This document shows, piece by piece, positions 52,437-54,538 of a stretch of 64,000 bases of DNA. The notes below the pieces were generated by a model. The model worked only from the letters and a program-made list of their open reading frames with translations. It searched no databases and was not told where the DNA came from. The translations under genes and the position numbers were made by a program. The stretch lies in assembly GCF_946227985.1 (NCBI RefSeq), contig NZ_CAMKGL010000002.1, positions 85,266-149,265 on the forward strand. Direction: 5' to 3'. Every line of letters begins with the position of its first letter. Position 1 is the first letter of the stretch. Source of the stretch: Serratia quinivorans (GTDB taxonomy: Bacteria > Pseudomonadota > Gammaproteobacteria > Enterobacterales > Enterobacteriaceae).

Positions 52437-53345
52437 GTGATTGAACTACGCCAACTGCGGCAATTTGTTGCCGTCGCGGAAGAAATGAGCTTTCACCGCG
52501 CCGCCGAGCGCTTGCATATGGCACAACCCCCGCTGACGGCCGCTATTCGAAAGATTGAGCAGGAGCTGGGCGTGCTGCTGCTGGAACGCGGCAACCGCGT
52601 CACCAGGATCACCGAAGCGGGGCAAGTGTTTCTGATTGAGGCGCGGCGCACGTTGGCGCAGTTTGAACGCACCCTCGGCAATACCCGACGTGCGGCACGC
52701 GGCCTGACGGAGTCGTTGCGTCTGACCTTCGTCGACAGCACGGTAAACGCTCTGTTGCCCGGCATTCTGCGGCAGTTTCGCCAGGCGCATCCGCAGGCGG
52801 AGTTTCACCTGCAGGAGGCGACGACCGCCGAGCAATTGATCGCCCTGCGCGATGACCGCGCCGACATTGGCATGGTAGTGCTACCGGTAACGCCGCAAGA
52901 GGGCTTGCAGATCCTGCCTTTCCTGTTCGATCGCATGGTGCTGGCATTGCCGGAAAACCACCCGCTGGCGGCGCAGCAGCAAGTGACGTTGAGCAGCCTG
53001 GCCGATCAACCCTGGGTGCTGTTTCCGGCGCATTACGGCCCCGGTATGCACACGGCGATCCTGCAGGCCTGTGCGGTGGCGGGATTCAGTCCGCATATCG
53101 TGCAGGAGGCACGGCAGATGCAGACCATCGGCGGGCTGGTGGCGGGCGGTGTGGGGATAGCGTTGATGCCGGCCCTGTTTGCAAGACTGCAATCGCCCGG
53201 CGTGGTGTTCCGCGAACTGAACGGCACAGGCAGCCCGGTAGCCTATACGCTGGCGCTGGCGTGGCGCACGGCTTCACCGCTGACGGACGCTTTTTGTCGT
53301 ATTGCCGCTGAACAGGCGCTGAATTTGGCAACCTGCGGTGATTGA
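52437..53345 (+). CDS. LysR-type regulator (GTG start), divergent from the SDR gene
   Basis: A 302-residue LysR regulator related to the BenM/CatM group (IELRQLRQFVAVAEEMSFHRAAERLHMAQPPLTAAI). The start is GTG at 52437, preceded by AAAAAGG. It is divergent from the SDR gene. Its stop codon lies next to a perfect TTGACA box, and the trp-type leader follows at 53378. Confidence 0.87.
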   Translation: MIELRQLRQFVAVAEEMSFHRAAERLHMAQPPLTAAIRKIEQELGVLLLERGNRVTRITEAGQVFLIEARRTLAQFERTLGNTRRAARGLTESLRLTFVDSTVNALLPGILRQFRQAHPQAEFHLQEATTAEQLIALRDDRADIGMVVLPVTPQEGLQILPFLFDRMVLALPENHPLAAQQQVTLSSLADQPWVLFPAHYGPGMHTAILQACAVAGFSPHIVQEARQMQTIGGLVAGGVGIALMPALFARLQSPGVVFRELNGTGSPVAYTLALAWRTASPLTDAFCRIAAEQALNLATCGD

Positions 53346-53371
53346 CAATACGCATACAGGGGGGATACCTT
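53342..53371 (+). promoter_or_regulatory. Candidate promoter of the trpS2 leader
   Basis: A perfect TTGACA -35 box at 53342-53347 overlaps the end of the LysR gene. The -10 is weak (GATACC or TACCTT, 16-18 bp downstream). Transcription would begin close to the leader ATG, which may make that frame nearly leaderless. An upstream promoter cannot be excluded. Confidence 0.4.
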
Positions 53372-53377
53372 AAAAGC

Positions 53378-53431
53378 ATGAATATACCGATGCAATCCAC
53401 AGTTAATCAGTCCTGGTGGCGCCTCTTCTGA
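53378..53431 (+). CDS. Trp leader peptide of the auxiliary trpS
   Basis: A 17-residue reading frame, MNIPMQSTVNQSWWRLF, with tandem Trp codons at 53414-53419 and a TGA stop at 53429-53431. E. coli trpL also ends in a WWR-containing motif. It lies immediately before a full set of attenuator segments and 100 bp upstream of trpS2. The ribosome site is poor: GGGGGG lies 13 bases before the ATG. An in-frame ATG at 53390 or a TTG at 53342 are alternative starts. The frame and the Trp pair are independent of which start is used. Confidence 0.7.
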   Translation: MNIPMQSTVNQSWWRLF

Positions 53432-53490
53432 AGGCGGCACGGGTATTCACACCTCTTTTCAATGCCGCCGGTTCTGGCGGCATTTTTATT
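53420..53490 (+). promoter_or_regulatory. Transcription attenuator with mutually exclusive hairpins
   Basis: Segment 1 CGCCT (53420-53424) can pair with segment 2 AGGCG (53432-53436). Segment 2 GGCGGCA (53433-53439) can instead pair with segment 3 TGCCGCC (53463-53469). Segment 3 with segment 4 forms the terminator ATGCCGCC/GGCGGCAT (53462-53483) followed by TTTTATT. Segments 2 and 4 share the heptamer GGCGGCA, the hallmark of an attenuator. A ribosome stalled at the Trp codons would cover segment 1 and favour the 2:3 antiterminator. Confidence 0.8.
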
Positions 53491-53530
53491 GCGTTGATCC
53501 GGTGGTGTATTTACTTTCAGGAGCAAGGCA

Positions 53531-54538
53531 ATGAGCTATACCATTCTGACCGGCGATCGTCCCACCGGCTCCCTGCATTTAGGTCACTACGTCGGGTCAC
53601 TGCGCCAGCGCGTTGAGCTGCAACAACACCATCAGCAAACGGTGCTGGTGGCGGATCTGCAGGGGTTGACCGATAACGGCAACAATCCGCAAAAAATCAG
53701 CACCAACGTGCTTAATCTGGTCGCCGACTATCTGGCGGTCGGTATCTGCCCGCAGAAGACCACCCTTTGCCTGCAATCCGCGCTGCCGGCGCTGGCTGAG
53801 TTGACCATGTATTATCTCAACCTGGTCAGCGTGGCGCGGCTGGAACGCAATCCGACGGTGAAAAGTGAAATCATCGAAAAAGACTTTTCTCGCAGCCTGC
53901 CGGCCGGCTTTCTGGTCTACCCGGTTAGTCAGGCGGCGGACATTACCGCCTTTGGTGCCACTCACGTGCCGGTTGGCGACGACCAATTGCCGATGCTGGA
54001 GCAAACCAACGAGATCGTCCGGCGTTTCAATCACATTGTCGGCCGGCAAGTCTTGACGGAGTGCCAGCCGTTGTTAAGTCACGTCAGCCGTCTGCCGGGG
54101 TTGGACGGGCAGGGCAAGATGTCGAAGTCGCGCGGTAACACCATCACTCTGGGCGCCGACGCCGATCAGGTACATAAGGCGGTGATGAGCATGTTTACCG
54201 ATCCGGGCCATTTGAATATCAACGATCCCGGCCGGGTGGAGGGCAATATGGTGTTCACCTATCTGGATGCCTTCTGTGACGATGGCGCGCTGGTGGCGGA
54301 GCTGAAAGCGCACTATCGCCGTGGTGGGTTGGGCGACATGAAAATCAAACGCCTGTTGGAAGATTGCCTGCAAAGCCTGCTGGAGCCGATCCGCACTCGC
54401 CGGGCGCAATACCTGGCCGATAAAGGCGAGCTGTTGCGCATTCTGCGTCAGGGCACCCAACGTGCCGACCAGGTCAGTCGGCAAACGCTGGGGCAGGTGA
54501 AGGCCGCATTGGGGCTGGATTTCTTTACCCTGAGTTGA
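53531..54538 (+). CDS. trpS2: Auxiliary tryptophanyl-tRNA synthetase
   Basis: A 335-residue class Ic synthetase that charges tRNA-Trp. The HIGH-type motif is [12 protein letters not shown] and the KMSKS motif is [20 protein letters not shown] and the C-terminal helices also fit. The usual enterobacterial trpS lies in the dam-rpe-gph-trpS cluster, which is absent here, so this is likely a second copy of the group that in other bacteria resists TrpRS inhibitors such as indolmycin. It sits alone behind the attenuator. The ribosome site AGGAGC is good. Confidence 0.9.

What the first reader, a model, noticed from the sequence alone, without database searches (positions are those of the whole stretch)
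53342..53531. Auxiliary trpS behind a complete trp-type attenuator
Seen: a 17-codon frame with tandem Trp codons and TGA at 53429-53431; alternative pairings 1:2 (CGCCT/AGGCG), 2:3 (GGCGGCA/TGCCGCC) and 3:4 (ATGCCGCC/GGCGGCAT plus T-run), with segments 2 and 4 sharing one heptamer. Known: this logic controls the E. coli trp operon, and an antibiotic-resistant auxiliary TrpRS in Streptomyces is also controlled by ribosome-mediated attenuation. Inferred: low charged tRNA-Trp or TrpRS inhibition would switch on a backup synthetase. I know of no description of such an attenuator for an enterobacterial trpS copy. The weak ribosome site of the leader is the main doubt.
Basis: partly seen in the sequence, partly recalled or inferred. 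Interest (0 to 1): 0.88.

Follow-up and report, generated by a model that had tools for sequence, protein, structure and literature searches.

The report
Tryptophan-sensing switch before spare synthetase gene
Serratia and many related bacteria carry a spare tryptophan-tRNA synthetase gene behind a tiny tryptophan-containing reading frame and a set of alternative RNA hairpins that look built to switch the spare enzyme on when charged tryptophan tRNA runs short.

Summary
A 17-codon leader (53378-53431) with tandem Trp codons, three competing pairings and a terminator precede a second trpS (53531-54538); a housekeeping trpS lies elsewhere. Of 143 trpS2 loci, the window's own included, 142 keep tandem Trp codons and one a single Trp; in a scan of 73 dereplicated sequences 71 score, shuffles 0.14. 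Of 20 further genomes from other proteobacterial families, 15 have a Trp leader, mostly those where this trpS is auxiliary.

The leader's missing ribosome site has an explanation: a -10 motif ends exactly 6 nt before its ATG in 41 of 72 sequences (shuffles 1.4), so the leader is probably translated leaderless. And further segments, 5 and 6, can hide the trpS2 ribosome site; helices 3:5 and 5:6 covary. Outside Serratia most sequences lack a terminator, so the shared device is probably translational.

Equilibrium folding does not reproduce the switch, and no expression data were available. Attenuated auxiliary trpS genes are known in Streptomyces; I found none described for gammaproteobacteria in ten searches of an open-access library.

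The parts
53342..53347 (+). -35 element TTGACA of the predicted promoter; overlaps the stop codon of the upstream LysR-type gene (ends 53345)
   Evidence: Read directly. TTG starting at -37 to -34 relative to the leader ATG in 55 of 72 dereplicated sequences, shuffles 7.9 on average, at most 16. The strict consensus scan found no promoter here: the -10 is weak.
53366..53371 (+). -10 element TACCTT, 18 nt after the -35 and 6 nt before the leader ATG
   Evidence: TANNNT ends exactly 6 nt before the leader ATG in 41 of 72 sequences; shuffles 1.4 on average, at most 4.
53378..53431 (+). leader peptide ORF MNIPMQSTVNQSWWRLF, predicted to start at or next to the first base of the transcript (leaderless)
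53414..53419 (+). tandem Trp codons, the sensing site
   Evidence: Conserved as a tandem in 142 of 143 loci
53420..53424 (+). segment 1 (pairs with 53432-53436)
   Evidence: in the Vibrio-type alignment 1:2 pairs in 93.8% of cells, but slid versions score as high on covariation
53432..53439 (+). segment 2 (2:3 antiterminator with 53463-53469)
53461..53471 (+). segment 3 (partner of 2, of 4, and of 5)
53476..53484 (+). segment 4 (3:4 terminator stem)
53483..53489 (+). T-run of the terminator (TTTTTAT)
   Evidence: Terminator-like in 18 of 19 Serratia-type loci but 1 of 28 Vibrio/Photobacterium/Alteromonadales-type sequences
53487..53506 (+). segment 5: 53487-53500 can pair with the trpS2 ribosome site and start codon (5:6); 53499-53506 can pair with segment 3 (3:5)
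   Evidence: 5:6 in the Serratia-type alignment: 95.5% of cells paired, one pair seen as U-A, G-C and A-U; 3:5 possible in Serratia but without double changes there
53519..53533 (+). segment 6: Shine-Dalgarno AGGAG and start codon of trpS2
   Evidence: SD-like site before trpS2 in 71 of 73 sequences
53531..54538 (+). trpS2, auxiliary tryptophanyl-tRNA synthetase of the TrpRS II type (335 aa)
   Evidence: closest solved structures 2a4m (deposited as tryptophanyl-tRNA synthetase II) and 1yi8, E about 1e-124

Best explanation
This is a ribosome-mediated attenuator that senses charged tRNA-Trp and controls an auxiliary TrpRS (TrpRS II type). Shown by sequence: a Trp-Trp leader ORF with a promoter fixed at the right distance for transcription to start at its AUG; alternative helices 1:2, 2:3, 3:4; a 3:4 terminator in Serratia; and a further segment 5 that can pair with segment 3 (or with the 3-4 loop and 4) or with the trpS2 ribosome site (6). 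Inferred: with enough Trp-tRNA the ribosome runs to the leader stop, 3:4 forms, RNA polymerase terminates in Serratia, and any transcript that goes on has its ribosome site hidden by 5:6. When Trp-tRNA is short, or the housekeeping TrpRS is inhibited, the ribosome halts at the Trp codons, 2:3 forms, 3:4 is prevented, segment 5 is captured by the freed 3/4 region before segment 6 is made, and trpS2 is transcribed and translated. The leader is translated leaderless. Confidence by step: Trp-sensing attenuator 0.92, leaderless leader 0.8, translational second stage 0.65, direction of the switch (on at low Trp-tRNA) 0.85.
For: Conservation: 142 of 143 loci with tandem Trp, 1 with a single Trp; three pairs of the 143 have identical upstream DNA, and 131 leader regions are distinct. 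Dereplicated, 71 of 73 in a 300-nt scan, shuffles mean 0.14, max 2 in 100 rounds; the two misses are L140 (one Trp) and L146 (leader further away because of an insertion). The housekeeping trpS of this genome has no such leader. Promoter fixed to the ATG, SD-like sites before the leader in 8 of 72 (shuffles 4.9) against 71 of 73 before trpS2. Covariation: 3:4, 4:5, 3:5 (92.6% of cells paired, 28 cells changed on both sides, score 0.360 against 0.217, 0 of 500 shuffles), 5:6, 2:3 in the Vibrio-type set (3 of 500). Model R1 hits all 11 trpS2 genomes among 79 of the family and one other, which holds a trpS2 remnant (R1 was trained on sequences of some of these genomes, on none of Serratia). If 3:4 is prevented, segment 5 is captured by 3/4 with probability over 0.5 in 27 of 28 and 27 of 27 sequences before the ribosome site is made. 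Leader presence goes with auxiliary status: 63 of 63 family genomes have two trpS; elsewhere 14 of 15 genomes with the leader have two trpS, and 4 of 5 without it have one (Fisher p 0.005, not corrected for kinship).
Against: No expression, start-site or ribosome data were available. Equilibrium folding does not show the switch: the chance that the trpS2 ribosome site is open is about the same with a stalled ribosome and with one at the stop codon in all four groups, and enforcing 2:3 raises it by more than 0.05 in only 13 of 28 and 5 of 27 sequences. In the Vibrio-type set segment 5 is captured by 3 even when the ribosome sits at the stop, so the switch must rest on the order of folding, which I did not simulate. 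5:6 in the Enterobacteriaceae is weakly supported (76.2% paired, 17 of 500 shuffles as high); 2:3 there is not above shuffles in percentage paired (153 of 500) and its inner part pairs in 54% of cells. A crude helix search finds 5 by SD no better than shuffles in the Serratia, Aeromonas and other-family groups (see Tried and rejected). No consensus promoter by the strict scan. One genome (G675) has the leader although this is its only trpS, and one (G557) has two trpS without a leader.
Confidence: 0.82

Rival explanations
1. Transcription attenuation only: 3:4 against 2:3 decides termination, and segments 5 and 6 have no role.
For: In the window and in 18 of 19 Serratia-type loci 3:4 is followed by a T-run; the geometry resembles the E. 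coli trp leader (recalled) and Rfam Trp_leader gives a sub-threshold match. Equilibrium folds do not show switching of the ribosome site.
Against: 5:6 covaries in the Serratia-type set itself and 3:5 and 5:6 covary in the Vibrio-type set, where only 1 of 28 sequences has a terminator-like site.
Confidence: 0.25
2. The 5:6 hairpin is a fixed brake on translation and the leader acts only by coupling (a ribosome ending or stalling nearby), without segment exchange.
For: At equilibrium the ribosome site is closed to the same degree whatever the ribosome position.
Against: Segment 5 keeps complementarity to 3 with compensatory changes, which a fixed brake would not need; the leader stop is 99 nt away from the trpS2 start in the window.
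Confidence: 0.15
3. The leader transcript is mainly a trans-acting small RNA or peptide, as described for Sinorhizobium rnTrpL and peTrpL.
For: A terminated leader RNA of about 110 nt would be made in Serratia; the Sinorhizobium trp leader RNA also starts at its ATG (PMC7298713, passages).
Against: The peptide sequence outside WW differs between clades, and the leader stays next to trpS2 in different neighbourhoods on chromosomes and plasmids.
Confidence: 0.05
4. Chance arrangement or a plain terminator of the upstream LysR-type gene.
For: The hairpin lies downstream of that gene.
Against: A Trp leader in 143 of 143 loci with few shared neighbours between groups; 2 of 20000 shuffles give the heptamer arrangement.
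Confidence: 0.01

Closest known systems
trp operon leader of enterobacteria (Rfam RF00513 Trp_leader)
   Same: Short peptide with tandem Trp codons, then alternative pairings 1:2, 2:3, 3:4 and, in Serratia, a terminator.
   Different: Controls a synthetase gene; below the Rfam gathering score (28.9 of 41); no TrpR operator-like site in the window, while the leader before trpE of the same genome (78.1 bits; gene identified) has one (operator pattern recalled); leader apparently leaderless; extra segments 5 and 6 reach the ribosome site.
Auxiliary, indolmycin-resistant TrpRS of Streptomyces under ribosome-mediated attenuation
   Same: A second trpS behind a Trp-codon leader; in S. lividans the leader trpL2 before trpS is reported as leaderless and without a U-rich stretch (PMC8079986, passages); an attenuator before trpS2 of S. 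avermitilis was predicted (PMC1262725, results section and passages).
   Different: Other phylum; the S. lividans leader has one Trp; whether those enzymes are the same TrpRS subtype, or those RNAs related to this one, was not tested here.
Caulobacter crescentus trpS leader reading frame (ribosome profiling)
   Same: A small translated frame in front of trpS in a proteobacterium (PMC4117421, passages).
   Different: Its sequence, codons and mechanism were not given in the passages seen, and I did not compare it.
pheST attenuator of gammaproteobacteria
   Same: Attenuation of a synthetase operon in gammaproteobacteria (named in a passage of PMC1262725).
   Different: Senses Phe-tRNA and controls the housekeeping PheRS (recalled); the anatomy was not compared.
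Deinococcus radiodurans TrpRS II
   Same: The nearest solved relative of the enzyme is deposited as tryptophanyl-tRNA synthetase II (2a4m; that it is from Deinococcus is recalled).
   Different: TrpRS II is reported to work with nitric oxide synthase and nitrate Trp (review PMC9437257, passages); nothing here tests that role.

Membership tests
Ribosome-mediated amino-acid attenuator (trp type) | Short ORF with clustered codons of the regulating amino acid near its end | tested here: met
   142 of 143 tandem, 1 of 143 single; 71 of 73 against 0.14 in shuffles
Ribosome-mediated amino-acid attenuator (trp type) | Mutually exclusive 2:3 and 3:4 helices placed downstream of those codons | tested here: met
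   Window; 3:4 covaries, 2:3 in the Vibrio-type set; 2:3 in the Enterobacteriaceae set is largely invariant and not above shuffles
Ribosome-mediated amino-acid attenuator (trp type) | Intrinsic terminator as output | tested here: met
   Met in the window and in 18 of 19 Serratia-type loci; in dereplicated relatives only 8 of 32, 6 of 9 and 1 of 28
Ribosome-mediated amino-acid attenuator (trp type) | Expression responds to charged tRNA-Trp | not testable with these tools
   No expression data
Rfam RF00513 Trp_leader | Score above the gathering threshold | tested here: not met
   28.9 bits, threshold 41; of 17 trpS2 loci searched, the window's own among them, none reached the threshold of any family
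T-box riboswitch | Match to the T-box family | tested here: not met
   No T-box among the Rfam matches
Leaderless mRNA | Transcription start at or next to the start codon | tested here: inconclusive
   Promoter spacing predicts it; no start-site data
Leaderless mRNA | No Shine-Dalgarno, AUG start | tested here: met
   SD-like in 8 of 72, near the shuffled level of 4.9; the start is ATG by construction of the scan
Auxiliary TrpRS (TrpRS II type) | Second trpS besides a housekeeping one | tested here: met
   63 of 63 family genomes
Indolmycin-resistant TrpRS | Enzyme insensitive to indolmycin | not testable with these tools
   Of the Trp-pocket residues named for E. coli TrpRS (PMC10201369, passages), F7, V42 and M132 are L, A and Q in all six TrpRS2 aligned, while G9, D135, I136, V144 and Q150 are kept; H45 (not named there) is Q (numbering counted on the alignment)

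The most novel reading that the evidence does not exclude
A proteobacteria-wide family of leaderless, six-segment, two-stage attenuators that travels with a mobile spare TrpRS gene: the ancestral output is access of the ribosome to trpS2, passed down a chain 2:3 to 3:5 to 6, and Serratia has added a terminator to the same hairpin. It would be an inducible, drug-insensitive backup for tRNA-Trp charging, set off by whatever stops the main enzyme.
Probability: 0.5. Interest if true: 0.82.

Novelty: new variant of a known kind. Interest (0 to 1): 0.7.

Why it matters
It would give a testable case of three open points at once: how a leaderless reading frame can serve as a tRNA sensor in bacteria close to E. 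coli; how a stalled ribosome about 100 nt away can open a ribosome site through a chain of helices; and whether spare TrpRS genes in common proteobacteria, some on plasmids or plasmid-labelled records of E. coli, Klebsiella and Salmonella together with the same leader, are an induced answer to natural TrpRS inhibitors.

Tried and rejected
Equilibrium folding with masked ribosome footprints and with 2:3 or 3:4 enforced did not separate an on and an off state; kept as evidence against. One search was meant to prevent 3:4, but the constraint seems to have removed the other pairs of those bases too, so its 'blocked' column is void; one search repeats it with a corrected constraint.

Origin from the trp operon leader of the same genome: the leader before trpE (L113) and the trpS2 leader share WW and GC-rich segments, but the Rfam match of the latter is not distinctive and only the former has an operator-like site; left open.

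A conserved gene neighbourhood as a clue to function: in 55 dereplicated loci the largest neighbour cluster covers 8, all Aeromonas; only one cluster joins two groups (7 loci, see Noticed in passing). T-box or other Rfam element as the control of TrpRS II genes on plasmid records of Bacillota: none found.

The crude helix search: for 3/4 by 5 the ten other-family loci score 10.6 against 6.8 shuffled, but the two regions overlap, so for the window and L168 the best helix is not a 3:5 helix, and L161 is weak. For 5 by the SD region, Vibrio-type sequences exceed shuffles clearly (8.2 against 5.9), Enterobacteriaceae slightly (6.9 against 5.8, at most 6.1), Serratia and Aeromonas not beyond the largest shuffled mean (6.6 against at most 7.1; 6.8 against at most 6.8), and the ten others not at all (5.5 against 5.6). 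The search window misses segments close to the SD, so I do not count it either way.

Rows left out: covariation used 28 of 32 (A1) and 27 of 28 (A2) dereplicated sequences and 12 Serratia-type rows (window, 10 Serratia loci, and L044 from the Aeromonas group; 11 distinct); Aeromonas (9 dereplicated, L044 included) had no covariation test of its own. The A2 set includes one metagenome bin labelled Desulfobacterium (L087). In one search one of 73 (L140) dropped out of the promoter count because its leader was not in the list, and for L075, L142, L150 and L153 I chose the nearer of several ATGs by eye. The tandem Trp of L127 and the single Trp of L162 were read by eye in the printed sequence; the scripts' filters missed them.

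Literature: ten searches, all used. Three papers looked up are not held (a survey of proteobacterial attenuators and the Streptomyces attenuation paper, both by ids recalled and perhaps wrong, and the indolmycin-resistance paper), so an earlier mention of a gammaproteobacterial trpS attenuator there cannot be ruled out.
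Full report
What is in the window. The sequence is Serratia, apparently near S. proteamaculans (98% protein identity of trpS2 to strain UME734). trpS2 (53531-54538, 335 aa) follows a LysR-type gene that ends at 53345 and faces a transporter-like gene on the other strand (both named from their translations, not by a search). The genome holds a second, better match to the TrpRS model on another contig (389.9 against 229.9 bits), so trpS2 is the auxiliary copy. 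Its closest solved relatives are 2a4m, deposited as tryptophanyl-tRNA synthetase II, and 1yi8. It is 28% identical to the housekeeping enzyme.

A covariance model made from other genera of the family finds the site as the only strong hit in the genome (E 3.7e-8, next 0.05). In 79 family genomes it hits the 11 that hold trpS2 and one more, G045, where a trpS2 remnant stands.

Conservation of the leader. In 110 trpS2 loci from two searches (the lists are capped at 30 and 80 loci; the window's own locus is one of them) every one has a short ORF with tandem Trp codons upstream. Thirty-three more from the family search were fetched: 32 have tandem Trp, L127 among them by eye, and L140 has a single Trp. 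Together 142 of 143 have the tandem and 143 of 143 at least one Trp. Three pairs of loci have identical upstream DNA and are probably the same or nearly the same records. After dereplication at 92% identity (73 sequences) a scan of 300 nt finds the leader in 71; dinucleotide shuffles average 0.14 and never exceed 2 in 100 rounds; the two misses are L140 and L146, whose leader ends 246 nt from trpS2. The housekeeping trpS of this genome has no such frame. The peptide outside the Trp codons differs between clades, as expected if only its translation matters.

In 398 genomes drawn from the phylum, 25 had a match at the cut used (E 1e-80), five of them from the family and seen before. Of the 20 others, 15 have a Trp leader (14 tandem, 1 single) and 5 do not. 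Two trpS genes are present in 14 of the 15 and in 1 of the 5 (in G701, G703 and G557 the other trpS is matched in two stretches of one frame). Fisher p is 0.005, with kinship not corrected. Within the family, 63 of 63 genomes with trpS2 have two trpS. So the leader goes with auxiliary status; G675 (leader, one trpS) and G557 (no leader, two trpS) are exceptions.

Why the leader has no ribosome site. Aligned on the leader ATG, relatives share TTG near -35 and a TGnTAnnnT-like element ending at -7, in ordinary promoter numbering if the A of the ATG is +1 (64 dereplicated of 110). Over 72 sequences, TANNNT ends exactly 6 nt before the ATG in 41 (shuffles 1.4, at most 4; at most 8 at any spacing), TTG lies at the -35 place in 55 (shuffles 7.9), and an SD-like site is present in 8 (shuffles 4.9), against 71 of 73 before trpS2 itself. 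In the window: TTGACA 53342-53347, TACCTT 53366-53371, ATG 53378. A strict consensus scan found no promoter, since TACCTT is weak. The simplest reading is that the transcript starts at the leader AUG. Leaderless Trp leaders are reported in Sinorhizobium (PMC7298713, passages) and Streptomyces lividans (PMC8079986, passages). For this leader it is a prediction from spacing; no start-site data were seen.

The second stage. Downstream of 3:4, relatives keep a segment 5 and the ribosome site (6). In the Vibrio/Photobacterium/Alteromonadales set (A2, 27 sequences) 3:5 pairs in 92.6% of cells, with 28 cells changed on both sides and a score of 0.360 against 0.217 in shuffles, 0 of 500; 5:6 pairs in 83.5%, 0 of 500 on score; 3:4 in 75.5%, 0 of 500; 2:3 in 92.2%, 3 of 500; 1:2 in 93.8%, 1 of 500, but two slid versions score as high. 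In the Enterobacteriaceae set (A1, 28) 3:4 pairs in 95.1% and the helix between the 3-4 loop with its flanks and segment 5 in 91.9%, both 0 of 500 on score; 5:6 is weaker, 76.2%, 14 of 500 on score, and 2:3 is 78.8%, 43 of 500. In the Serratia-type set 53487-53500 pairs with 53520-53533, covering the ribosome site and start codon: 95.5% of cells, 1 of 500 on score, one pair seen as U-A, G-C and A-U; 3:4 there is invariant but for one pair, and 3:5 is possible without double changes. Shuffles ignore kinship, as the tool warns; sliding the partners by 1-3 columns lowers the percentage paired in all twelve counts.

A terminator-like hairpin with T-run is found in 18 of 19 Serratia-type loci (the exception, L040, has a T-run broken by a C), and among dereplicated sequences in 4 of 4 Serratia, 8 of 32 other Enterobacteriaceae, 6 of 9 in the Aeromonas group and 1 of 28 of the rest. 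So termination is a local output, and the conserved target seems to be the ribosome site.

How it would work. Segment 3 has three possible partners. If the ribosome finishes the leader, 3:4 forms at once, segment 5 finds no partner but 6, and trpS2 is closed (and in Serratia transcription stops). If the ribosome halts at the Trp codons, 2:3 keeps 4 from taking 3; when segment 5 is made it can take 3 (or, in Enterobacteriaceae, the loop and 4) before 6 exists. With 3:4 prevented, capture exceeds 0.5 in 27 of 28 and 27 of 27 sequences. Against this, equilibrium folding keeps the ribosome site equally closed in both ribosome positions, enforcing 2:3 opens it in few cases, and in the Vibrio-type set capture is favoured even with the ribosome at the stop. 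The model therefore depends on folding order and remains an inference.

Function of the enzyme. Of the Trp-pocket residues named for E. coli TrpRS (PMC10201369, passages), three are changed in all six TrpRS2 aligned (F7 to L, V42 to A, M132 to Q) and five are kept (G9, D135, I136, V144, Q150); H45, not named there, is Q, and KMSKS is kept. Natural inhibitors of TrpRS exist, and producers carry insensitive copies (PMC9437257, passages; PMC5069768, passages). An inducible, insensitive backup is the natural guess; it was not tested. The gene has few shared neighbours between groups and occurs on plasmids: 93 records of the plasmid collection match at 1e-60, some of them chromosome-sized. Of 14 records fetched, a tandem-Trp leader is found in E. 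coli pB379_2 and pKTa005_5, a Klebsiella plasmid, a Salmonella record, Agrobacterium, Burkholderia and Methylocystis, and not found in Staphylococcus, Enterococcus, Lactobacillus, Streptomyces, Agathobacter, Acinetobacter and Rhizobium (7 of 14 each, 300-nt scan). By DNA similarity to one relative (L012), 2 of 5426 E. coli genomes hold the gene, both on plasmids.

Novelty. Trp-codon leaders before trpS genes are predicted or reported in Streptomyces, and a leader frame before trpS is reported in Caulobacter. In the listings of ten searches of the held library and the passages read I saw no description for gammaproteobacteria, none of a leaderless version there, and none of the 3:5/5:6 stage; key subscription papers are not held. 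Verdict: a real, conserved device; a new variant of a known kind.

Noticed in passing
L190 (G045:C5:16800-19400): A leader matching model R1 (E 1.7e-6) stands before a remnant that matches only residues 234-332 of trpS2.
   Followed up: partly
L140 (G330): The only leader of 143 with a single Trp codon: where others have the first TGG it reads TTG.
   Followed up: no
L146 (G061): An insertion of roughly 145 nt lies between segment 5 and the trpS2 ribosome site, so 5:6 would have to span it.
   Followed up: no
L168 (G675): A genome of another family whose only trpS is of this type and still carries a tandem-Trp leader; a 3:5 helix is not evident there.
   Followed up: partly
L198 (NZ_CP107771.1): The upstream sequence of trpS on a 9.3-kb 'Streptomyces' plasmid is nearly the same as on a Staphylococcus epidermidis plasmid (L195), which suggests contamination or mislabelling.
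   Followed up: no
L191, L193: trpS2 with its leader on E. coli plasmids lies near IS26 and IS1 transposase genes (pB379_2) or an IS3000 one (pKTa005_5).
   Followed up: partly
L013 and six other loci; L191: The one neighbour cluster that joins two groups (4 Aeromonas, 3 Enterobacteriaceae loci of 55); a gene annotated diguanylate cyclase also lies next to trpS2 on E. coli pB379_2. Whether these are the same family was not checked.
   Followed up: no
L200 (CP040041.1): Acinetobacter baumannii TrpRS of this type next to sucCD without a Trp leader, on a record called a plasmid; perhaps its housekeeping trpS.
   Followed up: no
53342-53347: The -35 element of the trpS2 leader promoter overlaps the stop codon of the LysR-type gene.
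   Followed up: no
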